Assembly: GCA_024330185.1 (NCBI GenBank)
Contig: JANDLV010000030.1
Span: forward strand, 1-47,886
Length of the DNA stretch: 47,886 bases
Source of the DNA: Candidatus Siliceabacter maunaloa
GTDB taxonomy: Bacteria > Actinomycetota > Thermoleophilia > Solirubrobacterales > Solirubrobacteraceae
Reading direction: 5' to 3'
The position numbers and the translations under genes are program-made. Each line of letters begins with the position of its first letter. Position 1 is the stretch's first letter. Positions 1,328 to 44,518 of the stretch are shown here, piece after piece. Under the pieces are notes generated by a model. That model was not told where the DNA came from, did no database searches, and worked only from the letters and a program-made list of their open reading frames with translations.

Positions 1328-2113
1328 TCAGGGCCGGCGGGTCTGGCCGGCGTCGAGCTCGTAGGCCAGCATCTCGCCGCGGATGCGCCGCTCGAAAAAG
1401 CCCGTGAACAGGATCGACAGGTAGCCCCCACACTGCGCGAGCTGGGGCGGGACCTCGTCATCGGCCAGCTCCCAGTCACCGTCATCCTGGATAGTGGCCC
1501 GCGCGAGATGGACCTGCGGGCTCCCGTCAGGAGCCAGGTAGGAGTAACGCAAGCGCACGATGCCCTCCGCGCGACCGGTCACGCTGCCCTGCGCCGACAG
1601 GCCATCGCCGGTCAGACTGAGCTCCCCCACCTCCAACTCCGCGCGCTGGGAGGCCGCACGCAGACGCACCTCCTCAGCACGCGTATCCGCGTCACCCCCG
1701 TAGTTCAACGTCACGATCCCCGTGCCCAGGCTCGCCTGACCACGCGTGATCGACTCCTGAAAGCGGATGCGATCCAGCTCGGCATCGCCCGACGTCACCT
1801 CGGCATCGAACGTATCGCTACGCCCATCACCCTGATAGGTCACCTCCACACCACCCCGCGCCCGCGACGTGATCGGCGCCAACACATCCAACCGACGATC
1901 CCCACGCAACACCCGCGAACGCGACACCCGCAACTTGGCCGGATACAGATACCCGGCAGCACCCTCGACCCCACACGCATCAACCACCGCAGGCAACGGC
2001 GAAACCGGAGACGGCGACGGCCCGACCGGGGCCACGGGCGGCTGCGGGCCCGGCGGCACGGGCGGCACGGGCGGCTGCGGACCCGGCGGCGGCGGTGATG
2101 GCGGAGCCGGCGG
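1328..2113 (-). repeat. 786-bp direct repeat, copy 1 (type A linker plus C-terminal domain)
   Basis: Identical by eye to 4035-4820 (offset 2707). It begins exactly at the stop codon and ends inside the proline-linker coding region; flanking bases differ on both sides. Confidence 0.92.
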
Positions 2114-3925
2114 TGAGGGCGGCTCGACCGGCGAGTTGTCGCTGCGGAGGATGTACGCCCGGCCCTGCGCAGAGCCGGTCGATCCGGCGAAGTTCTCCGC
2201 TGCGGCGGCGAAGTCCAGGAACCCATCGCCGTTGATGTCACCAAGCGGCACGAGGGCGCCGCCGAAGCCGCTCCCCGTCTGGCTGTCGGGATCGGGGATG
2301 GTCTGCAGGACCCGCTCCGTCGCCGGGTTGAACACGTGGACGTCGTTGCGCTCCGAGCGCGTGAAGCCCTCGACGCCGATCAGCAGCTCGTTGGCCGGGT
2401 TGGCCGCGTCCGGCACGAGATCGCCCACGCCGGCGCTGCCTCCGCCGAAGTTGCCCGACCTTGATGGCGTCGGGTCGTCGAGCCGGCTCAGGAGCACGAA
2501 GCCCGACCCCGCCTTGAAGTTGCCGTTCATGACGTAGCCACGCCCCGTGGCCGTGCCCGCCGGGGTGTTCTGGAGCGGCGCGGGCAGGTAGACGTCGGAC
2601 GCTGTAGTGCTGCCGAGGTCGCCTACCGCCGGCTCGTGGCTCGAGAGTTGCGAGCCGAAGGTGGCGCCCGACTGGCGCTCGGGATGCACGTAGGTGTAGA
2701 GGACCGCCCCCGTCGCTCCGTCGACCATGTAGGCGACGCCGACGTTGGCGAAGCCGGGATCGGGGTTGTCGAGCGGCAAGTCGGTCCCTGGCGACGGGAT
2801 CAGGATGTCGGGAATGCCGTCCGGCGTCGTCGTGCTGTCGACGCGCGAGCACGGCTCACCCGCTTCGATGTCAGGATCGATGCACGTCCCGATGTCGCCG
2901 ACAGCGCTCACCGTGTTGGCGAGCTGCTCGTTGTCGGCCGGCACGCCGCTCGTCGCGTCGCCCTGGGCGTCGGGGTTGCGGATCGTCGTGATGTCCTGGC
3001 CCGGCTCGGTGCCGTCGAGGATCACGGACGGATCGCTTCCTGCGATGTCCTCGCCGCTGTAGATGTAGGCCCGCCCGGCCTGCTCACAGACCGTGGCCGC
3101 GGTCTCCGCGCAATGCGAGCCCGGCTCGGCCGTCGTGCCACTCTCTGTGAGCTGCGGTGCGCCGACGACGAGGTCGGGGCGGGCGCCGCCGTCGAGGTCG
3201 CCGATCGCCACGGCGCGCGTGACGGTTGGACAGCGCCCGACGCCGAAGTTGCCCTCGCATGCCGTCATGCCCGCTGGATTGAGCGCAGTGCGCCCGAAGC
3301 CCGAGCCGCGCAGCAGCGCGTTGGGGTTCGCGGCGTCCGCGGGCGGCATGTCGATCCGCTTCAGCAGCGCCTGGGTCACACCATCGTAGATGTAGACACG
3401 TCCGCTGTCGGTCCCGTTCGCGTCAACGCCTCGGGCGCCGACGACGATCTCGGGAATGCCGTCGGCCGGGCCGATCGGGTTCTGGGGACATATCGCGCCG
3501 GTCGTGCCGCCGGCACAGCTGCCGAGGTCCGACATCGAGATCGCCCTGCTGCCCACCTTGGACGTCCAGAACGAGCCGAACCCCGCCCTGCTCCCGGCGC
3601 CGCCGGGGTCGGGTGCGTCGATCCGGTCGATCAGCTCGCCGGTCGCGCCGCTGATCACGAAGACCATGCCGTCCCCGTCCGGGCTGCCGGCCTGCTGGGG
3701 GAAGAGGAGGTCGTCGATCCCGTCGCCGTCGAGGTCGCCGGCGCTAGCCATGCCGCGCCCGAACACTCCGCTCACCAACGGCATGGGGCTGTCGAGGCGC
3801 TCCGCCTCGTAGGTTCGTGGCAGCCCAGGGCCCTGGGCGAGTGCCGTGCCGGCGCTAAGCGCGACGGTAACGCCTGCTCCGCCTAGAAGCGCAAGAAATC
3901 GTGCACAGCTCAATCGATTACTCAT
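1328..3925 (-). CDS. FG-GAP repeat exported protein with proline linker and shared C-terminal domain
   Basis: 865 residues. The start is ATG 3925, preceded by AAAGGGAAG; the frame is open further upstream, but only this start gives a signal peptide (MSNRLSCARF, hydrophobic core, ALA/Q cleavage). Residues ~35-600 form FG-GAP (integrin-alpha-type) units with Ca-binding DxDGxxD loops, such as GDLDGDGIDDLLF near the N-terminus and GDINGDGFLDFAA near the end. A Pro-rich linker (PPSPPPPGPQPPVPP) follows, then a ~200-residue C-terminal domain with LDVLAPIT, LGTGI and FTGFFERRIRGEM blocks. The last 262 codons are identical in DNA to the end of the next gene upstream (4035-6809). An extracellular or surface role is likely; the ligand is unknown. 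No membrane segment follows the C-terminal domain. Confidence 0.88.
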   Translation of the reverse strand: MSNRLSCARFLALLGGAGVTVALSAGTALAQGPGLPRTYEAERLDSPMPLVSGVFGRGMASAGDLDGDGIDDLLFPQQAGSPDGDGMVFVISGATGELIDRIDAPDPGGAGSRAGFGSFWTSKVGSRAISMSDLGSCAGGTTGAICPQNPIGPADGIPEIVVGARGVDANGTDSGRVYIYDGVTQALLKRIDMPPADAANPNALLRGSGFGRTALNPAGMTACEGNFGVGRCPTVTRAVAIGDLDGGARPDLVVGAPQLTESGTTAEPGSHCAETAATVCEQAGRAYIYSGEDIAGSDPSVILDGTEPGQDITTIRNPDAQGDATSGVPADNEQLANTVSAVGDIGTCIDPDIEAGEPCSRVDSTTTPDGIPDILIPSPGTDLPLDNPDPGFANVGVAYMVDGATGAVLYTYVHPERQSGATFGSQLSSHEPAVGDLGSTTASDVYLPAPLQNTPAGTATGRGYVMNGNFKAGSGFVLLSRLDDPTPSRSGNFGGGSAGVGDLVPDAANPANELLIGVEGFTRSERNDVHVFNPATERVLQTIPDPDSQTGSGFGGALVPLGDINGDGFLDFAAAAENFAGSTGSAQGRAYILRSDNSPVEPPSPPAPPSPPPPGPQPPVPPVPPGPQPPVAPVGPSPSPVSPLPAVVDACGVEGAAGYLYPAKLRVSRSRVLRGDRRLDVLAPITSRARGGVEVTYQGDGRSDTFDAEVTSGDAELDRIRFQESITRGQASLGTGIVTLNYGGDADTRAEEVRLRAASQRAELEVGELSLTGDGLSAQGSVTGRAEGIVRLRYSYLAPDGSPQVHLARATIQDDGDWELADDEVPPQLAQCGGYLSILFTGFFERRIRGEMLAYELDAGQTRRP

Positions 3926-4034
3926 GTGAATGTGTGGCTTCCCTTTCGAACCTCGGAACTGACGGACGATGCGATGAACTGCGGTGCCGCGGTGCGCTGG
4001 TCGCGCCCTGCCAGGCCGGCCCGGACCGCCACGG

Positions 4035-4820
4035 TCAGGGCCGGCGGGTCTGGCCGGCGTCGAGCTCGTAGGCCAGCATCTCGCCGCGGATGCGCCGCTC
4101 GAAAAAGCCCGTGAACAGGATCGACAGGTAGCCCCCACACTGCGCGAGCTGGGGCGGGACCTCGTCATCGGCCAGCTCCCAGTCACCGTCATCCTGGATA
4201 GTGGCCCGCGCGAGATGGACCTGCGGGCTCCCGTCAGGAGCCAGGTAGGAGTAACGCAAGCGCACGATGCCCTCCGCGCGACCGGTCACGCTGCCCTGCG
4301 CCGACAGGCCATCGCCGGTCAGACTGAGCTCCCCCACCTCCAACTCCGCGCGCTGGGAGGCCGCACGCAGACGCACCTCCTCAGCACGCGTATCCGCGTC
4401 ACCCCCGTAGTTCAACGTCACGATCCCCGTGCCCAGGCTCGCCTGACCACGCGTGATCGACTCCTGAAAGCGGATGCGATCCAGCTCGGCATCGCCCGAC
4501 GTCACCTCGGCATCGAACGTATCGCTACGCCCATCACCCTGATAGGTCACCTCCACACCACCCCGCGCCCGCGACGTGATCGGCGCCAACACATCCAACC
4601 GACGATCCCCACGCAACACCCGCGAACGCGACACCCGCAACTTGGCCGGATACAGATACCCGGCAGCACCCTCGACCCCACACGCATCAACCACCGCAGG
4701 CAACGGCGAAACCGGAGACGGCGACGGCCCGACCGGGGCCACGGGCGGCTGCGGGCCCGGCGGCACGGGCGGCACGGGCGGCTGCGGACCCGGCGGCGGC
4801 GGTGATGGCGGAGCCGGCGG
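4035..4820 (-). repeat. 786-bp direct repeat, copy 2 (type A linker plus C-terminal domain)
   Basis: Second copy of 1328-2113. Both synonymous and nonsynonymous positions agree, which points to recent duplication or gene conversion rather than protein-level selection alone. Confidence 0.92.
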
Positions 4821-6809
4821 CTCGGGCTCTGGCTGTGACGAGGCCTTGAGCACGTACAGCCCCGAGTTGGTGTCGCTGATGACGATCGTGCCGTCCGGCC
4901 CCGCTGCGACGCCCCTGACGTGCGCTTTGGGCGGGATCGAGTCCGTCGGGTCGGCTGTATCGGGCGGCACGAACGACGCCGCCTCGGCCAGCGTCGGGCT
5001 CGCGAGGTTGACGACCCGCACACCGCCTGCGTACGCCGCCACGAAGGCCTGATCCCCGCTTGGGCTCGAGACCGCGCTGTGGACCGAGTAGACGCCGCGG
5101 TCGGGCGGCGGAAACACCTGCGCCGGGGGGGTATGATACGTCCCGCGCAGGGTCGGCGCAGCGGGATCGGTGACGTCGACGACGCGTAGTCCGCCCCATT
5201 CGCCCTGCTCGTCCACCATCGCCCCGTTGGTCGTCTCGCCGCCGGGGCCGCAGCCGGTCTCGGGGGCCGTGGGAACTGGGCAAAGGGCGTCGCGCAGCGC
5301 CGTGCTCTCGGGGATGTCCAGCCCGATCGTCGGTGTCGACAAAGGCCCGACCGTCGGCTGGTTGTTCTCGCCCAGGAAGGTCTGCACGCGCGCTCTATCG
5401 CTCGACTGCACGCTGGCGACGATCACGCCCCTGGCTCCGGCGACCTCGAGGCCCTTGGAGGCGTCGCTGGCCGAGCAGTTGCCCGTGAGCCCGGTCTGCC
5501 TCGGGTTCTCCGACTCGGGCAGCGCGGACGCGTCGCGGAAGGCGATCTTGCCGTCGGGGTCCGCCAAGAGCTCGTCGGCCGGGCAGCCGCGCCCGACGTA
5601 GACGATCTCGCCGGGCACCCTGCTGTCCGGCTGGCGGTAGATCTGGGCCTCGTCGTTAGGGTCAAAGAGGGTGAACATCGCCTCGCACGCGAACTTCGAG
5701 CCCGCGACCGATGATGGCGCGTCAATGGTGAGGCTCGTCTTCGGTGCGATCCAGTCGGTCTCCCCCACGAGCGCGAGCGACCGGCCCTGCGTGCGCGCGA
5801 AGTCGACGTAGGCGGCGTTACCCTCGAGGTTGCGGTCATTGCGATCGTAGGACCACTGCCCGAGGAACGACGGCATGGCGGGGTTGGCCAGGTCGACCGT
5901 CACGAGCCCCTGGTCGAAGTAGCTCAGCAGCGCCTGATCGCCACCAGGGACGGCCCCCGGGCCGTAGCCCGAGTCAAACGGCCGGCAGCCGTTGTTCGAT
6001 TGGCCGTAGCGCGGGTTCTCGGCGGTGGCTCCGAACCCAGTGAAGCGGTCGTCTCCGTTGGGATAGGAGCCGACCTCGACCGGGTCGGTCGGGTCGGTGA
6101 TGTCGACGACGCGCAGGTCGCCGCGGAAGCCCTCGGTGGTCCCAGCCCTCCTGAACGGGCTGTTGGAGGCGAACGGCTCGGTCGACAGCGAGAGCACCCG
6201 CCCGTCCGTGCGCTGGACGAGCGCGACCTGGTCCTGGGAGGAGGCGCACTTGAATCCGTCGTTGTTGCTGGGGGGGTCGGACCGCTCGCCGCACGGCGGA
6301 TCGTCCGGTAGAGACAGGTTCTCGTCGGCGAAGTAACGACCAAGGAATTCCGGGTTCGCCCGGTCGCTCACGTCGAAGTAGCGGACGCCGCGGTCGGTGA
6401 AGTTCCCGCGAGCGTCGCAGCGAACGAGCGCCACTGCGGCGAGGTCTCCGGTGAACGACGGGGTGCTCACGCGCAACAGAGCCACGTCGCTGGCGACGGC
6501 GCCCGCCACCACGGGGATCTCGGAAGCGACCTGCGGCGCACTCGGGGTGCTCAGGTCGACGACCTTCACCGTGGTGGTCGGGCACTGGTAGGAGCCCCGA
6601 AACGACGAGCGCACACCCGAGCCTCCGAGGATGCCCGATCCGACGATCGCGGTGTCGCCCAGGACGGCGACCTCGCCGTTCAGGCCTTCTCCGCCGAGAT
6701 CGCTCTGGCCGATGACGTCGAGGCCTTGGGCCTGGGCCGCCACCGCCGGGGTGAAACCGGTGACCGCCACAAGAACGCCCACCGTCACTGCCCATGACCG
6801 AGTACGCAT
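4035..6809 (-). CDS. LVIVD-repeat exported protein with PA-like insert, proline linker and shared C-terminal domain
   Basis: 924 residues. The start is ATG 6809, chosen for the GGGAGAGG just upstream and the signal peptide (MRTRSWAVTV..., cleavage near AVAAQA). Residues ~30-385 and ~560-650 carry LVIVD propeller units (TVKVVDLSTPSAPQV, LRVVDITDPTDPVEVGSY, VVDVTDPAAP). Between them, residues ~385-520 look like a protease-associated (PA) domain inserted in the propeller (EIVYVGRGCPADELL, then DGKIAFRD and GARGVIV). A Pro/Glu linker and the type A C-terminal domain form the last 262 codons, identical at DNA level to those of 1328-3925. The protein is likely secreted or surface-exposed. It follows the Asp-box gene (6957-8765) with a 147-base gap and may be co-transcribed with 1328-3925. 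Confidence 0.88.
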   Translation of the reverse strand: MRTRSWAVTVGVLVAVTGFTPAVAAQAQGLDVIGQSDLGGEGLNGEVAVLGDTAIVGSGILGGSGVRSSFRGSYQCPTTTVKVVDLSTPSAPQVASEIPVVAGAVASDVALLRVSTPSFTGDLAAVALVRCDARGNFTDRGVRYFDVSDRANPEFLGRYFADENLSLPDDPPCGERSDPPSNNDGFKCASSQDQVALVQRTDGRVLSLSTEPFASNSPFRRAGTTEGFRGDLRVVDITDPTDPVEVGSYPNGDDRFTGFGATAENPRYGQSNNGCRPFDSGYGPGAVPGGDQALLSYFDQGLVTVDLANPAMPSFLGQWSYDRNDRNLEGNAAYVDFARTQGRSLALVGETDWIAPKTSLTIDAPSSVAGSKFACEAMFTLFDPNDEAQIYRQPDSRVPGEIVYVGRGCPADELLADPDGKIAFRDASALPESENPRQTGLTGNCSASDASKGLEVAGARGVIVASVQSSDRARVQTFLGENNQPTVGPLSTPTIGLDIPESTALRDALCPVPTAPETGCGPGGETTNGAMVDEQGEWGGLRVVDVTDPAAPTLRGTYHTPPAQVFPPPDRGVYSVHSAVSSPSGDQAFVAAYAGGVRVVNLASPTLAEAASFVPPDTADPTDSIPPKAHVRGVAAGPDGTIVISDTNSGLYVLKASSQPEPEPPAPPSPPPPGPQPPVPPVPPGPQPPVAPVGPSPSPVSPLPAVVDACGVEGAAGYLYPAKLRVSRSRVLRGDRRLDVLAPITSRARGGVEVTYQGDGRSDTFDAEVTSGDAELDRIRFQESITRGQASLGTGIVTLNYGGDADTRAEEVRLRAASQRAELEVGELSLTGDGLSAQGSVTGRAEGIVRLRYSYLAPDGSPQVHLARATIQDDGDWELADDEVPPQLAQCGGYLSILFTGFFERRIRGEMLAYELDAGQTRRP

Positions 6810-6956: not shown

Positions 6957-8765
6957 CTACCACCGCGATGTTCGCGACTGCCGCGAGGACCTGCGCCTCG
7001 GGCGCCACACGGCGAGCAGGCCGAGGCCGGTCAGCGCGAGGGCGAGGCCGCCGTAGCGCAGGCTGCCTTCAACCGGTTCGGCAAGCCCCTCAGGCTCCAC
7101 CACGGCCGCCACGGCCTTCGCGAGATCCTGCTTCTGCGTCTCTGGCGTTCCCGCGCGGGTGTCCGTCCAGAGCCCGAGCGATCCCTGATCGCTGGAGATG
7201 AGCCCCAAGCGGCTGCCGAGGTCGGGCAGGCCTTCCTTGGCGCCGAACCCGATCCGCGAATCGAACGAGCGGCTGGAGAGACGCAGGGCTGGCGTGAACG
7301 ACTTGCCGGCGTCGAAGGACGATTGCAGCGAGACGTGGTTCATCATGTTCCCGGGGTCCGGGCGAGGGTCGGCGGCGACGACATCGAGCCGGCCGTCGGG
7401 CGACACCGAGACCGTGGGCAGATCGAACGGGCGGCCGGAGAGACGCAGGGCGGGCGTCAACGACTCCTCAGCCCCGGAGGACGACTGCAGCGAGACCTTG
7501 CTCATGATCGTCGCGAAGTCCCCGCGACGGTCGTAGTACACGACGTCGAGCCGGCCGTCGGGCGACACCGAGACCTTGGGCAGGTACTGCCAGGTCCCGT
7601 CGCGCCGGGGGGTGTCGTTCACGCGTGTGGGTCCCCGCCAGTCCGAGCCTCCGGGCTCGAGCGTCCACAGCCAAACGTCGGCGTCGCCGAGGCGGTCGTC
7701 GTGGTAGGCGGCGTAGACGCGTCCGCTGCGATCGACCGCCACGGACGGGAAGGCGGGCAGGAAAACGATGAAGCGCTGGATCGGAGACACCGGGCTCTTG
7801 ACCACCGACTCTGCCCACGTCGATCCGCCGTCGCGCGAACGGGCGAGCACCAGCCTGAAGTCCCCGGCGTAGGGTGGACCGCCCATGCCCTCGTGAGCGC
7901 CCGCGTAGTCCAGCCTGTCCTCTCCGATGTCCAGGTGGAGGACGTAGATCTCACCCTCTGGACCAACGACCGGTGAAGGTGCGATCACCCGCTCGCGCGA
8001 TGGGGCGCTCACGCGCACAGGATCGCTCCAGGACGCTCCGCCGTCGTCCGAGCGAGCAATCTGGATCGGATTGCCCGTCTCCGTGAACTTCAACGTGCCA
8101 ACGTCGCCGGCCTGGAGCCAGGTCATATAGAGGCGGTTCGGCTTGACGGGATCGGCGGCGAGCCGGACCTGGAAGGCGAGCCGGCCCGCCACCTTGACCG
8201 GATCGGAGAGCGTGCGCCCACCGTCCTTCGAGCTGGAGACCCACACGGCGTTGGGGACGTTGCCCGATCCCCGAAGCGTGACGAACGAAAGATGGAGGGT
8301 GCCGTCAGCCGAGAAGGCGAGATCGGGAGCAAAGCACTTGGCCTCCTCTCCACGCGGCGCCGGGATCGCAGTCTGCGACCAGCTCGACCCTCCGTCGGAG
8401 GAGACGTGCAGGCCACACGAGAAGAAGGGCGTGTCGATACGGCTGGCGGCGGCCAGGTTGTCCGGCCGCACCGGGTTGCGCACGAGCGCCGGCGAGTTGT
8501 GGGCACTGATGTCCTCTGCGCTACCGGCGCCGAGATTGACCGGCGAATCGCTGCCCAGGACACGGGCGCTCGGTGCGCGATCGAAGGCACCCGAAAGGGT
8601 TGCCATCCCACCGCCGACGAGCACGAGCGACACACCCACCAGCCCCCAAAGCCACGAGCCCCGCCGCCTGTGGCGGTCGGGGCCCGTGTTTGCGACTGAC
8701 TCCTGTGAGGACTCAGCGGCCTCGTACTGCTCCTCGGGCCGCTTCTTCCCTCCGACTGCGATCAG
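6957..8765 (-). CDS. Asp-box (BNR/sialidase-fold) protein anchored by N- and C-terminal membrane segments
   Basis: About 602 residues. It carries Asp-box motifs of beta-propeller sialidase-like proteins: SSDGGSSW, SKDGGRTL, SDDGGASW and SRDGGSTW. A short charged N-terminus precedes a membrane segment at ~37-58 (WLWGLVGVSLVLVGGG), and a second segment sits near the C-terminus (YGGLALALTGLGLLAVW) followed by an Arg-rich tail. The propeller is therefore probably outside and tethered at both ends. No ATG or GTG fits well; I chose the CTG at 8765, which overlaps the previous gene's stop as CTGA with GAGAGG eight bases upstream, suggesting translational coupling. Its paralogue at 38356-39903 starts just before the same membrane segment. 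No evidence for real sialidase activity: the catalytic Arg triad was not identified. Confidence 0.85.
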   Translation of the reverse strand: MIAVGGKKRPEEQYEAAESSQESVANTGPDRHRRRGSWLWGLVGVSLVLVGGGMATLSGAFDRAPSARVLGSDSPVNLGAGSAEDISAHNSPALVRNPVRPDNLAAASRIDTPFFSCGLHVSSDGGSSWSQTAIPAPRGEEAKCFAPDLAFSADGTLHLSFVTLRGSGNVPNAVWVSSSKDGGRTLSDPVKVAGRLAFQVRLAADPVKPNRLYMTWLQAGDVGTLKFTETGNPIQIARSDDGGASWSDPVRVSAPSRERVIAPSPVVGPEGEIYVLHLDIGEDRLDYAGAHEGMGGPPYAGDFRLVLARSRDGGSTWAESVVKSPVSPIQRFIVFLPAFPSVAVDRSGRVYAAYHDDRLGDADVWLWTLEPGGSDWRGPTRVNDTPRRDGTWQYLPKVSVSPDGRLDVVYYDRRGDFATIMSKVSLQSSSGAEESLTPALRLSGRPFDLPTVSVSPDGRLDVVAADPRPDPGNMMNHVSLQSSFDAGKSFTPALRLSSRSFDSRIGFGAKEGLPDLGSRLGLISSDQGSLGLWTDTRAGTPETQKQDLAKAVAAVVEPEGLAEPVEGSLRYGGLALALTGLGLLAVWRPRRRSSRQSRTSRW

Positions 8766-9601
8766 CGCTCGTTCCTCTCGCTGTTGCGGCCAAACTGTAC
8801 CCGCTGCCGACGGGCGGCTGTGACCAGGAGACCGCCCACCAGGCCGGTGAGCCCCAGGGCCAGGACGGCCATGCTGATCGCCTGCGAGCCGAGGCCGTCG
8901 CTCTGCGGCGCAGCGGAGGCCTCCGCTGCAGACAGGGAAGCGGACTCCTCGGTGGCAAAGCCGCTCCACAGGTTGCCCGTCGCGCTACGCGCGGGGGCGG
9001 GTGACGCTACGGAGTCGGCCGTCGATCGTCCGCCCGCGGCCTGTGTCGCCGGTGCAGACTGCGTCACCGGCTCCTGCGCCACCGAGCCGGCGAAGACGTT
9101 CTGCCTACCGCTGCTCACCAAGCCCTGCGTAGCTCCGCTGCGCCGCGCCGCGAACTGCTCGGCGGCGGATGGAGCCGTCGCGCCGGACGGCCTGTCTGAG
9201 ACGACCGGGCTGGCCTCCTCAGACGGGCGGGCCGGAGTCAGGGACGACGCCGGCGCCGTGGCCGGGGCGGGGGCCGCAGCCGGGGATGGGGTCGCGGGCG
9301 TCGCGGGCGGGGTCGGGGTCGCGGGCGGCCCTGCAGCCGGGGGCGGAGGCGGAGGCGGAGCTGCAGCCGGGGCGGAGGTAGGGGCAGGCGCCGGGGCCGG
9401 CACTGCAGCCGGGGCCGGCACTGCAGCCGGGGCCGGGGCCGCAGCAGGGGCCGGGGCGGGGGGCGGGGGCGGCTGGACCGGAGCAGGCGGGGAAGAGGGC
9501 GTCCCGAAGTTAGGGCCCGTGCAGGCCCAAGCAAAGCTTGCCCCTACGACAACCACGGCCAAGACGGACAGCACCGCGCCCGGAAGAATCCTACGTACCA
9601 T
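8762..9601 (-). CDS. Ala/Pro-rich exported protein with C-terminal membrane anchor
   Basis: 279 residues. ATG 9601 has a strong GGGGGAG six bases upstream. The signal peptide ends in AWA/C (GASFAWACTGPNFG), a pattern shared with 37306-38229 (GASVAWACAPGEYG). A long APAPAA/PPPP low-complexity stalk occupies ~35-115. Then comes a Ser/Ala-rich region, a conserved ATGNLWSGF motif (~221), a membrane helix (SMAVLALGLTGLVGGLL) and a basic tail. The paralogue has ATGDLWSAF at the equivalent place. It is likely a cell-surface stalk or wall-spanning protein. No enzyme domain is visible. The next gene (Asp-box) overlaps its stop. Confidence 0.85.
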   Translation of the reverse strand: MVRRILPGAVLSVLAVVVVGASFAWACTGPNFGTPSSPPAPVQPPPPPAPAPAAAPAPAAVPAPAAVPAPAPAPTSAPAAAPPPPPPPAAGPPATPTPPATPATPSPAAAPAPATAPASSLTPARPSEEASPVVSDRPSGATAPSAAEQFAARRSGATQGLVSSGRQNVFAGSVAQEPVTQSAPATQAAGGRSTADSVASPAPARSATGNLWSGFATEESASLSAAEASAAPQSDGLGSQAISMAVLALGLTGLVGGLLVTAARRQRVQFGRNSERNER

Positions 9602-9642
9602 CGGTACTCCCCCTTCTTGAAGTTGACACCTGCCTGACGAGG

Positions 9643-9671
9643 ACTATGCACAGTCCGTAACGCGAAGTCAA
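9643..9671 (-). promoter_or_regulatory. Sigma-70-type promoter for the Ala/Pro-rich and Asp-box genes
   Basis: On the minus strand TTGACT (9671-9666) and CATAGT (9648-9643) are separated by 17 bases. The predicted start of transcription lies about 35 bases before ATG 9601. It sits in the 195-base gap after the FtsH-like gene, so this pair can be transcribed independently. Confidence 0.6.
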
Positions 9672-9796
9672 CATCTGTCGCACCCAGCGTCGCATCCCGC
9701 CGGCAGGCCGATGTCTCCGGCGCGGCGACACCGGCCGCGGTCCTGCTCATCGCCGGCCGCGTGCAGGAGCTGCGGGTCGTCTCACAGCGGGGAAGG

Positions 9797-12469
9797 CTAC
9801 GGACGCATTCCCGAGGTCGGTTGGGTGGCCGCGATCTCCTCGACCTCCTTCAGGGTGAGCGTCTCGCGCTGCAATAGCTCGGCGACGACCCGGTCCAGCA
9901 GCTCCCTGGAGTCCGCGAGGACGTCTCTGGCCAGCTCGCCGGCCTCGTCAACCAGGCGGCGGACCTCGGAGTCGATCAGGCGAGCGGTCTCGTCGGAGTG
10001 GACGTGCCGACCGTCGGGTCCGTGCTGGCTGTCGTGATTGATCGCCCCGACCGCGTTGCTCATGCCGAGTTGGGCGACCATCCGGCGGGCGAGATCGGCC
10101 ACGGTGGCAAGATCGGTGCTCGCACCGTCGCGGGGTTCGCCGAAGACGAGCTCCTCAGCGGTACGGCCGCCGAGCAACGTCGCCATCCTCTCGATCAGCA
10201 GCGAGCGAGAACGCGTGTAGTGCTCGTCTGACTCCGGTAGCCACGCCGTCCCCAGCGATCCCGCTCGGGGGATGATCGAGAGCCTGTGCAGCACCCGGCC
10301 GCCGGGCAGTGCCATGGCGACGAGACCGTGGCCGGCCTCGTGGTAGGCGACGGCGCGCCGGTCCTCGTCGGTCATCTTCCGTGCGCCACCAATGCCGAGA
10401 TAGGCCCGTTCGACGGCCTCCTCCAGAAGTTCGGTCGTGATCCGGCCGACGCCGCGCCGGGCGGCGAGCAGCGCCGCCTCGTTCATGACCCCGGCGAGAT
10501 CGGCGCCGGCCATGCCGCGTGTCAGGCGCGCGACCGCGTCGAGATCGACGTCAGGACCGATGGGCTTGCCCGCCGCGTGCACGTCGAGGATACCCCGCCG
10601 CGCGTCGACATCGGGCAGCTCCATCACGACCTGCCGGTCGAAACGGCCGGGCCGCACGAGCGCCGGATCGAGGATGTCCGGGCGGTTCGTGGCCGCCATC
10701 ACGACGACCCCGGCGCGCGGACTGAAGCCGTCGAGCTCGACGAGGATCTGATTCAGGGTCTGATGGCGATCGCTGTCGTCGCTCCCCAGCGAGCCGCGCG
10801 CAGCGCCGACGGCATCTATCTCGTCGATGAACAGGATCGCGGGGGCGATCGACCTCGCCTCGGCGAACAGGTCGCGCACGCGGCCGGCGCCCTCACCGAC
10901 GTAGCGCTGCACGAAGTCGCTTCCCGAAACCGCGACAAAGGCTGCATTGGACTCGCCCGCGACCGCCCTGGCCAGCAGCGTCTTGCCGCAGCCCGGCGGA
11001 CCCGAGAGCAGGTAACCCCGCGGGATCCGCGCCCCCATCTCCGCAAAGCGCTCAGGGGCGCCGAGGTAGTCGCGGACCTCGCGCAGCTCCTCGATCGCCT
11101 CGTCGGCTCCGGCCACCTGAGCGAAGGTGACCCGATCCTCCGCGAGCGTACGCTGGCCGACGGAGCGCTCGCGCATCGACAGGCGGCGCTGGCGCTCCGG
11201 GGCCTCCAGGATCCGCTCCAGCGCGCGCTCGAGGTCGGCCTGCGAGATCGTCTTCATGTCGGCGCGACCGGCGAGCATCCCTGCCTCGTTGATCACGCTC
11301 GCCAGATCGGCGCCGGTCGTACCCACGGCGCGCTCGGCGATCGCCTCCAGGTCGCTCTCCGGATCGAGCGGCCTACCCCTGGCGTGCACCGCCAGGATCG
11401 CTTGACGGCCCTGTTGATCGGGCAGCTCAAGCCCGATCGAGCGGTCGAAGCGCCCCGGGCGCAGCAGCGCCGGGTCCAGCGTGTCCGGGCGGTTGGTAGC
11501 GCCGACGAGCATGATGCCCTCGGTCGGGGAGAAACCGTCCATCTCGGCGAGGATCTGGTTGAGCGCCTGCTCCTGCTCGGAGCCCGAGCCCGTGGTCGGG
11601 GCTCCCCCGCCGGTTCCCCGCCGGCCGGCCACCGAGTCGAGCTCGTCGATGAACACGATGGCCGGCGCGTTCTCGCGCGCCTCGTTGAACAGCTCGCGCA
11701 CCCGGGAGGCGCCGACACCGACATACATCTCGACGAAGTCCGAGCCCGAGATCGAGTAGAAGGACGCACCCGACTCCCCGGCGAGCGCCCGGGCGACGAG
11801 GGTCTTCCCGCAGCCCGGCGGTCCGAACAGCAGGATGCCCTTGGGCATTCGTGACCCCATGGCCGCAAAGCGCTCTGGCCGCGACAGGAACTCCGAGATC
11901 TCGCGTAGTTCGGTGACTGCCTCATCCTGTCCGGCGACGTCCGCAAACGTGACGTCGCCCTCCTGAGGCTCAATCTTCCGCGCCCCGCTGCTGACGTTGA
12001 ACAGCCCCGTGCCGCTTCGGAACGAGAAGATGAAGTACAGGAACACGATCACAAGGATCAGTGCCGGAATCAGGACCGAGATCGGCGTGATGACCCGCTT
12101 GCCCTGCTGCTGATCGACCGTCGTGGGGACACCGTTGGGGATCAGCACGTCGGCGAGGTTGTCGCGCAGCACCTCCGACTTGAAGTACGGCGTGTTGTAC
12201 GGGCGCACAGCACCCCCGGGGGCGACGTAGGAGCCGACGACGTACGCGTCGACGTCGAGGATCCGCGCGCTCTCGATCCGATCTCGCTCGGTGAGGTCCA
12301 GGAAGCGGTCGAGCGCGAGGGGATCCCCCGACACGTGCGGGCGCGAGTACTCCAGGAGGCCGATGTAGCCGGCCAGCAGCGCGGCGACGGCGAGCAGTGC
12401 CCAGCCGCCGGCCGAGAGCTTCGGCGTCCATAGTGTCCTGCGTCGCTTCTTCTTCCTCTCGGCCCCCAT
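9797..12469 (-). CDS. FtsH-like membrane protease with two AAA+ modules and M41 peptidase
   Basis: 890 residues, clearly longer than ordinary FtsH (~600-700). Order: two membrane helices (~21-42 and ~128-149) flanking an extracytoplasmic segment; AAA-1 (Walker A GPPGCGKT at 216-223, Walker B IVFIDELD, pore YVG, Arg-finger RPGRFDR); AAA-2 (GPPGCGKT at 490-497, [18 protein letters not shown]); then an M41 zinc protease with HEAGH at 710-714 and the third-ligand region [10 protein letters not shown]. All key ATPase and protease residues look intact in both modules. Family knowledge: FtsH degrades membrane and misfolded proteins. A Cdc48-like double ATPase ring on an FtsH body is unusual. It follows the SBP gene by 33 bases. 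The start has no strong ribosome site, but the paralogue at 44519 begins at the same place. Confidence 0.93.
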
Positions 12470-12502
12470 CGGCGCCAGCTTATACGGTCCCAGGCTTCGC
12501 GA

Positions 12503-14278
12503 TCATCCGCTTCGCATCCGGCCCAGGAGCCCCAGAGCGACGATCACGAGTACGACGCTCAGCAGACCCAGCGAGACGAGCCCCAGGGTGCCGATCCCGC
12601 TGTCGGTGTTCTGCGATCCGGGAGTGGGCGGGGCTGCGGGCGCTCGGGTCGACGGCCGCATGACCAAGGGCAGGAAGGAGCGCTTGTCGAGGATGCCCTT
12701 CCCCGCCACGTAGGTCCAGCCGTCGTAGATCGAAGGCCGGAAGACGAACGCGCCCTCCCGGAAGAACAGGGGGATCACCGGGGCGTCCTGCGCGAGCAGG
12801 TCAATCTCGTCCTTCACCAGGCGGCGGCGTTCCCTGGGGTTCGTCTCGGCGGCGACGCGCTCGGCGAGCTCGTCGAAGTCGGCGCTGCGATAGCCGGAGT
12901 AGTTCAGCGGGGCCTGGCCCGAGCCGAACTCCACGCGCAAGAAATCCGGGTCATAGGAGGCGAGCGGGGGTGAGCTCCAGATCGCCGCCTGGAAGCTCGG
13001 CGATCCGCCGTCCTCACCCACTGCGGCCGACAAGCGGCTCGCCGAGAGCTCCTGCAGCCGGGCGCTGGCTCCCGCCCGCTGCAACGCGAGGACCACCTCG
13101 CGCCCGGCCTCGCGCGCGACCGGATCGTTGTCCGGGGCCATGACGCGAATCTGCGGCAGCTTCAGGCGCGCAAATGCGCTGCGGGCACGAGCCAGCTCCA
13201 AGCGGTACACGGCTCCCGGCGTCGTCCAGCCCGACCCGGGGTGCAGATAGCCGCGGTCGGCCGGTACGGCGGCCCCGCCTCCGCCTCCGATGGTCTCGTT
13301 GCGCGCGATCCGCCGCAGGTCGAGCGCGCTCGCGACCGCCCTACGCGCCGAAGCCTCGTCGAAGGGCGCCTCCCTCAAGTTGAACATCAGCGTGGTGCCC
13401 GCGTACGTCGAGCCGAACCTCGTCTTGAACTCGGCCCGCCGGAGGCGATCCCGCGCAGCCTGTGGGAGCGTGGCCGGGATCATGTCGATCCGCCGGGCTT
13501 CGAGGGCTCGCACCGTCCTGTCGAAGTCCGCGATGAACGGCACGTCGATGTTCTCGACCGTCGGCCGCCCGAGGAAGTAGCCGCGGTTGGCCTCGAAGCG
13601 ATAGCCCGCTTCGCGCCGGTGCTCCACCAGGCGGTAGGGGCCGCTGCCGACCGGAAGGCCCTCCGGCGCCGACGCTCCCCGGGGCAGACCCTCCCACAGG
13701 TGTTGGGGCAGGATCGGTACGTCGGACAACGGCTGGTCGCTGAAGCCCGGCGAGGGGTGACTCAGCGTGAACTCGACCGTCTGGGCATCGAGCGCCTCAA
13801 CGCTGCGCACGGCCTCGAGCTGAGGCGTGAACCGCGGATGGAAGCGCTCGGCGAAGTACGAGTAGGTAAAGGCCACGTCCGCGGCCGTCAGCGCCCGCCC
13901 GTCGTGCCAACGCACGCCCTCAGGCAGCCTGATCGTCAGGGTCTTCCCTGCGTCGCTCTTGTCCATCGAGCGGGCGAGCCACGGAGCCGGCGCCCCGTTC
14001 CTGCTGCGCCACATAAGCGTGTCGTAGATCAGCGTGACCAGCGGGTAGCCGAGCTCGAAGGTATAGGGCGTCAGACTGCCGTCATCGCCCGGAAAGGGGA
14101 TCCGCACCCGCTCGGCGGCGCGGGCCGCCTCGGCGCTTGACACCGCTGTCGTGGCGAGGCTTGCGAGCACGACTGCGATGACGGCGAGCGAGATGAGTCT
14201 CGCCCGCCGGGCGAGCGCGACCCCGCGCGACGGGCGCGCCTCTGCGCGAGCGCTTCGGCAGGACGGGATCGGGAGCAT
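12503..14278 (-). CDS. Family-5 (peptide/nickel type) solute-binding protein with C-terminal membrane anchor
   Basis: 591 residues. Signal/anchor near the N-terminus (LISLAVIAVVLASLATTAV), then an SBP_bac_5 body: LIYDTLMWR, ADVAFTYSYF, PVGSGPYRLVE, the hallmark SALDLRRIA, LNYSGYRSADFDELAERV and VIPLFFREGAFVFRP. It lacks a lipobox. Instead the last ~30 residues form a membrane helix (GTLGLVSLGLLSVVLVIVALGLLG) with a basic end. No ABC permease or ATPase gene lies in the window, so it is an orphan binding protein; a role as a surface sensor or substrate presenter is possible. It is paralogous to 42760-44457. It starts 12 bases after the CooC-like gene and precedes the FtsH-like gene, so the three are probably one operon. 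Confidence 0.9.
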   Translation of the reverse strand: MLPIPSCRSARAEARPSRGVALARRARLISLAVIAVVLASLATTAVSSAEAARAAERVRIPFPGDDGSLTPYTFELGYPLVTLIYDTLMWRSRNGAPAPWLARSMDKSDAGKTLTIRLPEGVRWHDGRALTAADVAFTYSYFAERFHPRFTPQLEAVRSVEALDAQTVEFTLSHPSPGFSDQPLSDVPILPQHLWEGLPRGASAPEGLPVGSGPYRLVEHRREAGYRFEANRGYFLGRPTVENIDVPFIADFDRTVRALEARRIDMIPATLPQAARDRLRRAEFKTRFGSTYAGTTLMFNLREAPFDEASARRAVASALDLRRIARNETIGGGGGAAVPADRGYLHPGSGWTTPGAVYRLELARARSAFARLKLPQIRVMAPDNDPVAREAGREVVLALQRAGASARLQELSASRLSAAVGEDGGSPSFQAAIWSSPPLASYDPDFLRVEFGSGQAPLNYSGYRSADFDELAERVAAETNPRERRRLVKDEIDLLAQDAPVIPLFFREGAFVFRPSIYDGWTYVAGKGILDKRSFLPLVMRPSTRAPAAPPTPGSQNTDSGIGTLGLVSLGLLSVVLVIVALGLLGRMRSG

Positions 14279-15266: not shown

Positions 15267-17228
<1,962 letters not shown>

Positions 17229-17730: not shown

Positions 17731-18648
<918 letters not shown>

Positions 18649-18651
18649 GAC

Positions 18652-19074
18652 TCACGCCACCGCGACCACCGCCCCGAGCTGGCGCAATATTCCCAGTTCG
18701 TCGAACTCCGACCACTCCTCGACGATCTTGCCGTCGACGATGCGGTAGATGTCGGCCCCGGTGAAGGTCACCGGCCTTCCGGTCGGCGCGATCTCCTCGT
18801 AGGGACCCTGGTGAGTGCCGCGCCAGACGTGGCGCACGGCGACCATGTCGCCTTCGCCGACGAGGTGCTCGAGCGTGGTGGTCATGTCCGGGAAGGCCGC
18901 CCGGAGCGCGCGGAAGAACTCCACCCATGCCGGGATGCCGCGCACCGGCTCTGCTTGCCCCGGGAGGTGGTTGACGTACTCGGTGGCGAAGCACTCGGTG
19001 GCGACGGCGATGTCGCCGTTGTTCACACCGTCCTCGTAGTGGCGGCGCACCAGTTCCTTGTTCGCTTCGGACAC
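18652..19074 (-). CDS. SnoaL-like polyketide cyclase/ester cyclase family protein
   Basis: 140 residues, the usual SnoaL length. GTG 19074 was chosen because GGGAG lies seven bases upstream and the fold starts right after it (NKELVRRHYEDGVNNGD). Motifs of the NTF2-like ester cyclase family: ATEYVNHLPGQ, FRALRAAFPDM, VWRGTHQG, VTFTGADIYRIVDGKIVEEW. The family contains cyclases and many uncharacterised small-molecule hydrolase or isomerase-like proteins, so the substrate cannot be told. It is divergent from the ligase/ALDH gene, with 116 bases between starts. It ends three bases before, and in frame with, the truncated PD40 copy. Confidence 0.85.
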   Translation of the reverse strand: MSEANKELVRRHYEDGVNNGDIAVATECFATEYVNHLPGQAEPVRGIPAWVEFFRALRAAFPDMTTTLEHLVGEGDMVAVRHVWRGTHQGPYEEIAPTGRPVTFTGADIYRIVDGKIVEEWSEFDELGILRQLGAVVAVA

Positions 19075-19190
19075 GGTTGCTCCCTTCGGCTTGAAGTCGT
19101 GTGCTGCGCCCCTGCCCATCCGGCGTGAAGCCATCACCGGTGTCGGGCCAAGGTAGGTAGCTCGGCAAAAAGAACCCGTACGACTACGCA
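19075..19190. other. Divergent intergenic region
   Basis: It separates the SnoaL-like gene (minus) from the ligase/ALDH operon (plus) and must hold both promoters. I see an 8-bp palindrome CACCGGTG at 19135-19142 but no convincing -35/-10 pair. Confidence 0.4.
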
Positions 19191-22181
19191 TTGTTGCCGG
19201 CCGCCCTCTTCGCCACGATCGACCGAACCGGTGTGCCCAACGCTCACCGCGCGGCTCATCACCGAAGAGGGAGGAGGATCGTCATCTCAGGAGGCAGTGC
19301 GTCAAGCTGCGAACGGGCCGCCCCCGTGCTGGTTGGTCAAGAGGCTCGCGGGAGCACGCTCGGCGACCTGCTCGCCGACACCGCGGCGCGGCGCGGCGAC
19401 GCGGCCGTGCTCGCGGACCACACCACCGCGACGCGAGGCGCGGTCGGTGACGCCCCGTCTATCGCTCGGGAGCAGACCTTCGAGGAGCTGGACCGTCAGG
19501 TCAATAGCCTCGCTCAGGGCCTGATCGAAGCCGGACTCGGGCGCGGTGAGCGCATCGGCGCGGTGCTGCCCAACTGCGCCGAGCTGCTGGCGCTGTGGTT
19601 CGCGGTCGCTCGCGCTGGCGGCGTACTGGTGCCGCTCGATCCGCGGCTGACCTGCCACGAGCGCGACGGACTGCTGCGCCATGCGGGGGTCTCGCTCCTG
19701 GTCGCCTCGCCCGGGCATCTCTCCGAGCACTCCGACCTCCCCCGCCTTCGCACTCGCGTGAGCGTCGGCGGCGGGCTCGCGGGCGCGGAGTCGATCGAGG
19801 CGCTCACCGCCACCGATGGTGCTCGCCCCGGCGTGCGGGTGGCCTCTAGGGATCCGCTGGCGGTGCTCTACACGTCGGGGACCTCGGGCCGGCCCAAGGG
19901 ATGCGTACTCGCCCACGACAGCTTCGTCGTCCCGGCACGCTCCTTTCGTGACAGGCTGCAGGTGACCCCTGCGGATCGCTGCCTCGTCTGCCTGCCGCTG
20001 TTCCACATGGCCGGCCAGTCGTTCGTCACGGCGGCGGTCGCCGGCGGCGCCACGATCGCGCTGGTGGATCGCTTCCGCGCCTCACACTTCTGGGCGCAGG
20101 TGCTGGAGACCCGCGCGACGCTGGTCCGCCACCTCGGGGAAATGCTCGCGCTGCTCATCCAGCGGGAGCGCCAGCCCGAGGACCGCCGCCATGCGCTGCG
20201 CGCGGTCTACGGCGGCGGCGCGGTCCGACCGGTGGCGTCGACCTTCGAGCGGCGCTTCGGGGTGCCTGTCGTGGAGGGCTACGGCCTGACCGAGACCAAT
20301 ACCGTGCTGTGCAACGAGCTGGCGAACAACAGGCACGGCTCGATCGGCCGTGCCCTGCCCCACTGCGAGGTAAGGATCGTGGACGAGGACGGGATCGCGC
20401 GCGCCGACGGCGAGGTCGGGGAGATCCAGGTCCGTCGCAACCCGGTCGTGATGCGCGAGTACCTCGAGGACCCGGAGCTGACGGCCGAGACCTTCGCCGG
20501 GGAGTGGCTGCGGACCGGAGACCTCGGGCGGCGGGACGCCGACGGCCACTTCTCCTTCGAGGGCCGGACCAAGGACGTCATCCGCCGGCGCGGCGAGATG
20601 ATCTCGGCGCCGGAGGTGGAGGAGGTCCTCAACCGGCATCCGGCCGTGGCGACGTCCGCGGTGGTCCCGTCGCCAGGTGCGCACGGCTCGGAGGAGGTCA
20701 AGGCGTTCGTCGCTCCCGCGAGCGGGGCAACCGCTTCGGCCGCGGAGCTGACCGCGTGGTGCCGGCGCTTCCTCGCGGAATTCAAGGTGCCGACGCTCGT
20801 CGAGCTCAGCGACAGCCTCCCGCGCACGTCTACCAACAAGGTCAACAAGGCGATGCTGCGCGCCGGGGGCGCCGGGGACGACGCGGGCCATGACGCGCCC
20901 GGGCGATCGCGGAAGCCGAAGGCTGTCGCGTCGCAGCGCGACGAGCCCTGGCAGGCCGTCACGAGGCTGGCCGCCGTGGTGCGACGGCGAGCCCGGGAGA
21001 TCGAGGACTCCGCCGTGGAGCTGCTGGGGGTGTCGAGGCGCGTCGCTCGCGCGGACATCTCGCTCACGCTGCGCCGGCTGGACGCGCTCCCAGACCTACG
21101 CTCGCTGCTCGAGGATCGAGTGCCCGTCGGGAAGGTCGCGCTCGCCCTGCCGGGCAACGCGATCCTCAGCAACCCAGTGGCCACGGTGCTCTGCGCCACC
21201 GTCGCCGGCAACGAGGTCAGGGCGCGCCTGCCGCGCCGCCGCCGGGCCTGGATGGAGCTGCTGGGCGAACTACTGGACGCCGCGGCACTGCCGGCGACGG
21301 AGCTCGTGGAGGGCGACGGGCCGAGCTTCCTCGCCGAGAGCCTCGCCGACCCCGAGGTCGCGGTCGTCATGGTCTTCGGAGCCGATGCCTGGGCGGCGCC
21401 CTACGAGAACGACGCTCGTCGCACGGGGACGACCTTCATCTTCGAGGGCCCGGGCAAGGATCCATTTCTGGTCCTTGCCCCCGTGGCCGTCGAGACGGCT
21501 GCCGTCGATGCCGTGCACGCCGCGTTTCACAACGCCGGCCAAGCGTGCACGTCACCGGAGCGCTTCTATGTCTTGCGCGACGCCCACGATCGGTTCGTCG
21601 CTCGCGCGGCTGAGCTTGCCACCGTCCTCGCTGTCGGCGAGCCACGCGACGAGCGGACCGAGGTGGGGCCGGTGGATAGCCCCGAGCGCGCCCGCCACGT
21701 CCGGGGCCACATCGTCGACGCGATCGCACGGGGCGCAGAGGCGGTCTGCGGCGAAACGGCGACCGACCCCGCGCACCACGACGGTTCCAACACGCTTGTC
21801 CTCCCCACCGTCCTCGCCGGAGTCGATCATCGAGCCGCCGTCGTACGCGAGGAGACCTTCGGTCCCGTGATCCCGGTGATCGAGGTGTCCTCGGCGCGTG
21901 AGGCGATCGAGCTGGCCGAGGACTCCGTCTACGGCCTGTCCGCCAACGTCTACGGCGGCCCGGAGTGGGTGTCACGCCGGCTGGCCCGCAGTCACGGCAC
22001 GGTATTCGTCGACGAGACGTGGCTGGGGCGCCGCCGCAGGCAGCCGCTCGCGCCCTACGGCGGTCGCAAGCGCTCGGGGTGGGTCTGGGAGTCCCACGGC
22101 GAGACGTTCGTCAGGCGCGACGGTCCGCGCAACAACCTCCTCGAGTTCAGCGCGCCCCGGCCGCTCGCCTCGAGCAGGTGA
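19191..22181 (+). CDS. Fusion of AMP-forming acyl-CoA synthetase and aldehyde dehydrogenase
   Basis: Up to 996 residues. The first half (~55-550) is an adenylate-forming ligase: LYTSGTSGRPKG (227-238), GYGLTETN, WLRTGDLG, GRTKDVIRRRGEMISAPEVEE and catalytic Lys in NKVNK (~545). The second half (~590-990) is a complete aldehyde dehydrogenase: Glu in FEGPGK (E752), catalytic Cys in NAGQACTS (C786), EETFGPV. Family knowledge suggests the ligase makes an acyl-AMP/acyl-CoA and the dehydrogenase interconverts it, or a related acid, with the aldehyde; direction is not visible. Unlike carboxylic acid reductase there is no carrier-protein domain between them. The start is uncertain: TTG 19191, GTG 19233 or GTG 19326 all lie before the domain, and none has a good ribosome site. 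First gene of a nine-gene operon. Confidence 0.88.
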   Translation: MLPAALFATIDRTGVPNAHRAAHHRRGRRIVISGGSASSCERAAPVLVGQEARGSTLGDLLADTAARRGDAAVLADHTTATRGAVGDAPSIAREQTFEELDRQVNSLAQGLIEAGLGRGERIGAVLPNCAELLALWFAVARAGGVLVPLDPRLTCHERDGLLRHAGVSLLVASPGHLSEHSDLPRLRTRVSVGGGLAGAESIEALTATDGARPGVRVASRDPLAVLYTSGTSGRPKGCVLAHDSFVVPARSFRDRLQVTPADRCLVCLPLFHMAGQSFVTAAVAGGATIALVDRFRASHFWAQVLETRATLVRHLGEMLALLIQRERQPEDRRHALRAVYGGGAVRPVASTFERRFGVPVVEGYGLTETNTVLCNELANNRHGSIGRALPHCEVRIVDEDGIARADGEVGEIQVRRNPVVMREYLEDPELTAETFAGEWLRTGDLGRRDADGHFSFEGRTKDVIRRRGEMISAPEVEEVLNRHPAVATSAVVPSPGAHGSEEVKAFVAPASGATASAAELTAWCRRFLAEFKVPTLVELSDSLPRTSTNKVNKAMLRAGGAGDDAGHDAPGRSRKPKAVASQRDEPWQAVTRLAAVVRRRAREIEDSAVELLGVSRRVARADISLTLRRLDALPDLRSLLEDRVPVGKVALALPGNAILSNPVATVLCATVAGNEVRARLPRRRRAWMELLGELLDAAALPATELVEGDGPSFLAESLADPEVAVVMVFGADAWAAPYENDARRTGTTFIFEGPGKDPFLVLAPVAVETAAVDAVHAAFHNAGQACTSPERFYVLRDAHDRFVARAAELATVLAVGEPRDERTEVGPVDSPERARHVRGHIVDAIARGAEAVCGETATDPAHHDGSNTLVLPTVLAGVDHRAAVVREETFGPVIPVIEVSSAREAIELAEDSVYGLSANVYGGPEWVSRRLARSHGTVFVDETWLGRRRRQPLAPYGGRKRSGWVWESHGETFVRRDGPRNNLLEFSAPRPLASSR

Positions 22182-38246: not shown

Positions 38247-38288
38247 GCGCAGGACGCGGTTCGCCGCGTCCTGCGCCTCAGTTTTTTG
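38247..38288 (+). terminator. Rho-independent terminator with TTCG tetraloop
   Basis: A perfect 14-bp stem (GGCGCAGGACGCGG / CCGCGTCCTGCGCC) closes a TTCG loop at 38261-38264 and is followed by six T (38283-38288). It ends the Ser/Pro-rich gene 18 bases after its stop. Confidence 0.95.
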
Positions 38289-38355
38289 TGCGCGCACTCT
38301 TGCTCTCGGGTAGAGTCGCGCTAGAGACCCGCCGCCGAAGGAACTGGGAGGCTTT

Positions 38356-39903: not shown

Positions 39904-39970
39904 GGGCGGTGAGGCCGCGTCGAGGTCAAGGCCTCCTGCGAGCGCATGCTGCGCGCCGCGGCTGCCGAGC

Positions 39971-40300
39971 GTGACGCTTCCGCGCGCGGAAGCACTGGCC
40001 GCGGCGCTCGTCGGCCGCCCCGTGAGCACCTACCTGTGGGGGGACGGCCGCGTCGTGCGGGTCGAGGACGGGGTGATCCTGGTCGCGGGATACCACGGCC
40101 CCGAGGACGCACGGGTTCGCCTCGCCGACGTCCAGGCCGGCTTGGATCAGCTCGACGCGGCGGGCGAGGTGCCGGTGACGGTCGACGCGCTCGGGCCCTG
40201 GGCGACGTACGTCGCGGCGATGCTCGTCGGGGTCGAGGACGCGACGTTCGCTGACGCCCCCGCCCGCGTCAAGCTGTCCGAGCGCCCGGTCGCGGGCTGA
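39971..40300 (+). CDS. Small hypothetical protein
   Basis: 109 residues from GTG 39971. Codon use is strongly GC-ending at third positions, like the neighbours, which supports a real gene. No signal peptide or membrane helix. Two parts are visible: a beta-rich start (VSTYLWGDGRVVRVEDGVILVAGY) and a VDALGPWATYVAAMLVGVEDATF helix. I do not recognise the family. No good ribosome site is seen. It sits between the Asp-box and PAP2-like genes of the right cluster. Confidence 0.55.
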   Translation: MTLPRAEALAAALVGRPVSTYLWGDGRVVRVEDGVILVAGYHGPEDARVRLADVQAGLDQLDAAGEVPVTVDALGPWATYVAAMLVGVEDATFADAPARVKLSERPVAG

Positions 40301-40312
40301 CCTGCCGCCCGT

Positions 40313-40340
40313 TTGGATACGGCGGCCCTGCCGGTACGGT
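40313..40340 (+). promoter_or_regulatory. Possible promoter of the PAP2/DM13/SBP operon
   Basis: TTGGAT (40313-40318) and TACGGT (40335-40340) are 16 bases apart, in the gap after the small gene. If real, an ATG at 40341 would be too early, which supports a later start for the next gene. Confidence 0.3.
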
Positions 40341-40391
40341 ATGTTGGCACCCGGGTGGGGGGTTTGGCATGCGACGATCCGCGAAGTCGTC

Positions 40392-44457: not shown

Positions 44458-44518
44458 GAGCTGAGATCGCCGTGAACTCGAGCATTGGCCGCACGCCACG
44501 CACTACGCTGACAGCCCC

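What the first reader, a model, noticed from the sequence alone, without database searches (positions are those of the whole stretch)
1328..6809. One C-terminal module mounted on different beta-propellers
LVIVD (4035-6809), FG-GAP (1328-3925) and PD40 (15267-17228) proteins, unrelated in their N-terminal propellers, all end in a proline linker plus a ~200-residue domain with LDVLAPIT, LGTGI, EVRLRAASQ and FTGFFERRIRGEM. Two subtypes (A, B) are homologous. The domain is not one I recognise; it has no membrane helix. It may be a secretion, wall-binding or assembly domain shared by a surface toolkit.
Basis: partly seen in the sequence, partly recalled or inferred. Interest (0 to 1): 0.76.

Follow-up and report, generated by a model that had tools for sequence, protein, structure and literature searches.

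The report
Exchangeable C-terminal domain on exported proteins
About 28 otherwise unrelated exported proteins of one actinobacterium end in the same undescribed two-part immunoglobulin-like domain, which recombination copies from gene to gene like an interchangeable tail, probably to attach each protein to something outside the cell.

Summary
The ~200-residue module ends about 28 proteins of this genome (Solirubrobacteraceae), not three. It is a pair of homologous Ig-like repeats (AlphaFold2 pLDDT 93.6) and matches no Pfam, NCBIfam or PDB sequence family. Among 76 full-length copies from 19 genomes, 75 end within 17 residues of the stop codon. Hosts are propellers (FG-GAP, LVIVD, PD40, RCC1, NHL) but also proteases, CAP, CHAP, amidase, nuclease and glycosidase proteins, usually with signal peptides. 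Cysteines occur only as one-inside/one-just-before pairs (15 of 15), as expected of an exported, disulfide-stapled domain. The module moves independently of its host: two window genes share 786 bp at 100% identity, from the proline linker to the stop codon, although their propellers differ. The FG-GAP propeller's ortholog (77% identical) carries a different module (45%; AU p=0.00035). Other relatives carry RTX or Ig-like tails after similar linkers. Best reading: a non-catalytic extracellular attachment domain, homogenised by gene conversion and swapped at proline linkers. The swapping is shown; ligand and attachment role are inferred. A dedicated sorting signal (T9SS-CTD-like analogue) is possible but unsupported.

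The parts
1328..3925 (-). FG-GAP propeller protein with signal peptide (MSNRLSCARFLALLGG...), proline linker and subtype-A module
   Evidence: Pfam FG-GAP 3e-15; permissive signal-peptide scan; N-part 77% identical to the G007 ortholog
1331..1948 (-). subtype-A module, copy 1 (two Ig-like repeats)
1949..2113 (-). proline-rich linker inside the identical tract, ending in Cys-GVEGAAGY
1328..2113 (.). 786-bp tract 100% identical to 4035-4820, from linker start to stop codon
4035..6809 (-). LVIVD propeller protein with signal peptide (MRTRSWAVTVGVLVAV...), proline linker and subtype-A module
   Evidence: Pfam LVIVD 5e-14
4038..4655 (-). subtype-A module, copy 2
4035..4820 (.). 786-bp identical tract, second copy
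15267..17228 (-). PD40 propeller protein with proline linker and subtype-B module
   Evidence: Pfam PD40 6e-32
15270..15875 (-). subtype-B module, copy 1
15876..16038 (-). PEP-repeat/proline linker of the PD40 protein
17731..18648 (-). remnant: last PD40-like residues, linker and subtype-B module; no signal peptide; probable truncated gene
17734..18339 (-). subtype-B module, copy 2

Best explanation
The module is a family-restricted, non-catalytic C-terminal accessory domain of exported proteins, made of two tandem Ig-like beta-sandwiches behind a flexible proline linker. Shown here: it sits at the extreme C-terminus, its hosts are diverse and mostly carry signal peptides, it is homogenised between genes of one genome, and it is swapped on orthologous hosts at the linker. 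Inferred: the host is exported by its N-terminal signal peptide, the linker spaces the active domain away, and the (usually basic) module holds the protein non-covalently to a common extracellular partner, most likely an anionic wall polymer or exopolysaccharide matrix. Gene conversion between paralogous modules, bounded by the linker and the stop codon, keeps the copies of one genome matched to that partner and lets new hosts acquire the tail.
For: About 28 copies in the genome; 75 of 76 full-length copies end within 17 residues of the stop. Hosts: 6 FG-GAP, LVIVD, PD40, RCC1, NHL, 3 CAP, trypsin, subtilase, Amidase_2, CHAP, GDSL+PKD, LTD+phosphoesterase, LTD+Exo_endo_phos, GH39/5-like, galactose-oxidase-like. 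Strict signal peptides in 38 of 67 host ORFs against 21 of 480 other long ORFs, an imperfect control. Cys in 15 of 76 modules, always one in the module plus one in the 15 residues before it; 61 have neither. Two homologous Ig-like halves. Module DNA 99.3-100% identical in five same-genome pairs, host DNA 54-79%, downstream 44-59%. FG-GAP ortholog with swapped module: host 77%, module 45%, AU p=0.00035. Subtype A is a supported clade private to one genus, on FG-GAP, LVIVD, PD40, CAP and glycosidase-like hosts. Host relatives carry RTX, Ig-like or GH114_assoc-like tails after similar linkers. Module net charge averages +16 to +27 outside this genome, while host parts are mostly near neutral or acidic.
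Against: No ligand, localisation or binding datum exists. In this genome the modules are near neutral (mean -0.8, range -15 to +12), which weakens a purely electrostatic attachment. Hosts can do without the module. Ig-like pairs are also used as spacers, stabilisers or dimerisers.
Confidence: 0.5

Rival explanations
1. A dedicated C-terminal sorting signal: the module is recognised by one unidentified envelope machine that exports, cleaves or covalently anchors all bearers, analogous in logic to the T9SS CTD or PEP-CTERM systems.
For: Strictly C-terminal, many per genome, hosts with signal peptides, sporadic distribution; the T9SS CTD is also a C-terminal Ig-like sandwich (PMC4804311); PEP-CTERM shows the same many-per-genome pattern (PMC1569441).
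Against: Host relatives carry unrelated tails; some genomes have only one or two copies; no invariant processing motif or membrane helix; sortase does not track with it; no partner was identified.
Confidence: 0.17
2. A protein-protein assembly or dimerisation domain that clusters exported proteins into surface complexes; gene conversion keeps the interfaces compatible.
For: Homogenisation within genomes is what a self-interacting interface would favour; Ig-like C-terminal domains can dimerise by strand swapping (PMC4804311).
Against: No dimer was modelled; the module is not limited to proteins expected to act together; many copies of one genome differ by about half of their residues.
Confidence: 0.15
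3. A passive spacer or stabiliser with no specific ligand, spread as a recombinational hitchhiker because proline linkers and near-identical 3' ends recombine easily.
For: Linkers are GC-rich low-complexity DNA and are the swap points; alternative tails are tolerated.
Against: 23 columns are invariant over 22 diverse copies, several of them Arg or Lys, and the cysteine pairs arose more than once, which suggest selection on a defined structure or surface.
Confidence: 0.15

Closest known systems
T9SS C-terminal domain (Por secretion CTD; RgpB CTD, PMC4804311)
   Same: C-terminal Ig-like beta-sandwich on many unrelated signal-peptide proteins, joined by a flexible linker
   Different: the T9SS CTD is a single seven-stranded sandwich of Bacteroidota with an outer membrane and PorU; here two sandwiches in an actinobacterial family and no sequence match to any Pfam or NCBIfam model
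PEP-CTERM / GlyGly-CTERM sorting signals (PMC1569441, PMC3237569)
   Same: sporadic, many per genome, C-terminal, on diverse exported hosts
   Different: PEP-CTERM is a short tail with a motif, transmembrane helix and basic cluster (GlyGly-CTERM likewise, from own knowledge); this is a ~200-residue folded domain without a helix
RTX calcium-binding repeats (PF00353)
   Same: occupy the same position, after a Pro/Ala linker, on homologous FG-GAP propellers of sister genomes
   Different: unrelated sequence; not replaced genome-wide, since this genome keeps RTX matches
Bacterial Ig-like / FnIII-like accessory domains of adhesins and enzymes
   Same: fold (Z 7-9 to many Ig, FnIII and macroglobulin-type domains)
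   Different: no sequence membership in any Big or fn3 model; fixed as a C-terminal pair

Membership tests
T9SS type A CTD | match to a T9SS CTD sequence model | tested here: not met
   no credible Pfam or NCBIfam hit
T9SS type A CTD | T9SS machinery (SprA/Sov) in the genome | tested here: inconclusive
   PF14349 gave no match, but the control rang nowhere
T9SS type A CTD | C-terminal Ig-like sandwich on signal-peptide proteins | tested here: met
PEP-CTERM / LPXTG-type sorting tails | short motif plus C-terminal transmembrane helix plus basic tail | tested here: not met
   folded beta domain runs to within 17 residues of the stop
LPXTG/sortase substrates | presence tracks with sortase | tested here: not met
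   sortase in 95 of 146 family genomes, module in 25; G011 (96% complete) has module hits and no sortase hit
RTX calcium-binding domain | PF00353 match | tested here: not met
   no PF00353 hit to modules; an alternative tail does match
Bacterial Ig-like fold | Ig-like beta-sandwich | tested here: met
   model and structural matches
Bacterial Ig-like Pfam families (Big_x, fn3) | score above curated cut-off | tested here: not met
Carbohydrate- or wall-binding module | demonstrated ligand binding | not testable with these tools
   no binding data; positive charge outside this genome is only suggestive

The most novel reading that the evidence does not exclude
The module is the tag of an undescribed protein-sorting or anchoring system of Actinobacteria, working like the T9SS CTD with an unknown partner machine, and kept uniform across dozens of cargo genes by gene conversion.
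Probability: 0.17. Interest if true: 0.85.

Novelty: new variant of a known kind. Interest (0 to 1): 0.6.

Why it matters
It gives boundaries to a domain family that none of the libraries used here holds, links dozens of uncharacterised exported proteins of one actinobacterial lineage, and is a clear case in bacteria of a C-terminal domain evolving in concert while the proteins that carry it do not. If the common ligand is found, the module would be a ready-made surface-display or attachment tag for Solirubrobacteraceae.

Tried and rejected
Known family: Pfam, NCBIfam and PDB-sequence searches, none credible. Sortase coupling: sortase is widespread and does not track. RTX tails as the genome-wide alternative to the module: not complementary, both coexist. 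Mobile-element origin: no match in plasmid or phage records; no dedicated insertion-sequence or integron search was made. Assembly artefact as the cause of the identical tracts: the same pattern with small differences occurs in further pairs, one of them in another genome; the exact 786-bp identity could still hide collapsed near-copies. Host-module co-inheritance: rejected for the window FG-GAP gene, the PD40 genes and an FG-GAP group, not for RCC1 (p=0.14); the PD40 proteins are only distantly related in their N-parts, so that test says little about swapping on true orthologs; the protease and amidase orthologs do keep matching modules. Papers on the domain: none found.

Full report
Observation. 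The three named genes are present at the stated places and end in homologous ~200-residue modules after proline-rich linkers. Module A (1328.. and 4035..) and module B (15267..) are 52% identical. A fourth copy at 17731-18648 sits on a truncated PD40 remnant. One search of the window's own genome gave 29 matches, about 28 copies (one gene is split by a frameshift, one is cut by a contig end).

Anatomy. The module is two tandem repeats of ~95 residues. The halves align to each other (HHalign 91%, E 1e-6) and the AlphaFold2 model (pLDDT 93.6, pTM 0.85) has the same strand order in each half. Structural matches are to many Ig, FnIII and macroglobulin-type sandwiches at middling Z (8.8 at best), so the fold is common and says nothing about function. 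Single-repeat relatives also sit at extreme C-termini, on subtilase, CAP, cellulase and reprolysin-like hosts. No Pfam, NCBIfam or PDB sequence family matches.

Position and export. Of 76 full-length copies from 19 genomes, 75 end within 17 residues of a stop codon; the exception lies in a reading frame cut by a contig edge. A strict signal-peptide rule finds 38 of 67 hosts against 21 of 480 other long ORFs (the control includes spurious ORFs, so the contrast is rough). Cysteine occurs in 15 modules, each time as one residue inside and one within 15 residues before it; the other 61 have neither. On the module tree these fall in more than one place (subtype A; the L119/L120/L137 clade; the L128/L133 pair). 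I read this as an exported-domain disulfide staple (inference).

Hosts. In this genome: six FG-GAP, LVIVD, PD40, two RCC1, NHL, three CAP, trypsin, subtilase, Amidase_2, CHAP, GDSL lipase with PKD, LTD with metallophosphatase, LTD with Exo_endo_phos, a GH39/GH5-like and a galactose-oxidase-like protein. So propellers are common hosts but not the rule.

Distribution. 25 of 146 genomes of the same family have it, from 1 to about 28 copies; named relatives are mostly Solirubrobacteraceae/Solirubrobacterales MAGs. In a class-wide sample the only hit outside the family was a weak single-repeat one; a phylum-wide sample gave none outside the family. These searches scored only a few candidates per genome, so rare distant copies may be missed. 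Plasmid and phage records gave nothing.

Exchange. In five same-genome pairs module DNA is 99.3-100% identical, while the host part is 54-79% and the 300 bp downstream 44-59%. The window FG-GAP propeller is 77% identical over 645 residues to one in another genus (G007), but the modules are only 45% identical and the switch falls at the linker; holding the two modules together as a clade is rejected (p=0.00035). Subtype A is a supported clade restricted to one genus but carried by FG-GAP, LVIVD, PD40, CAP and glycosidase-like hosts. Other orthologous pairs (subtilase, trypsin, amidase) keep matching modules, so vertical inheritance and exchange both occur. Relatives of the same FG-GAP propeller end instead in RTX repeats or Ig-like tails, and relatives of the subtilase in Ig-like or GH114_assoc-like tails or none visible, after similar linkers (the Ig-like call for these tails is by eye, without a Pfam match). 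The C-terminal slot is thus a general exchange point. Gene conversion as the mechanism is inferred from the tract shape, not observed.

Function. Shown: C-terminal, exchangeable, homogenised, on hosts that mostly carry signal peptides. Inferred: attachment to a shared extracellular partner. In the other genomes the module is strongly basic (mean +16 to +27) while host parts are mostly near neutral or acidic; in this genome modules average -0.8 and hosts are more acidic too, which could be salt adaptation but weakens a simple charge model. A sorting-signal reading is kept as a rival: the T9SS CTD is also an Ig-like sandwich (PMC4804311) and PEP-CTERM shows the same many-per-genome pattern (PMC1569441), but no partner was found, sortase does not track, and hosts tolerate other tails.

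Verdict. Real and new as a family, ordinary in fold, notable for its concerted evolution and swapping.

Noticed in passing
6957-14278 and 38278-47242: An inverted pair of paralogous blocks: BNR protein, double-AAA FtsH-like protein and substrate-binding protein (71-75% DNA identity; the last two named by eye).
   Followed up: no
17731-18648 and 18652-19191: A truncated PD40-plus-module remnant directly behind what reads by eye as a SnoaL-like gene.
   Followed up: partly
2-1225: A second LVIVD-type gene is cut by the contig end, so whether it carries the module is unknown.
   Followed up: no
G000 loci L030-L048: Modules and hosts of this genome are less basic or more acidic than those of related genomes, suggesting salt or other environmental adaptation.
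   Followed up: partly
L077 6001-6600: A subtype-A-like module in a MAG labelled Chloroflexi; probably a mis-binned contig.
   Followed up: no
L123, L116, L034: Frameshifted or fragmentary module copies, apparently decaying genes or assembly errors.
   Followed up: no
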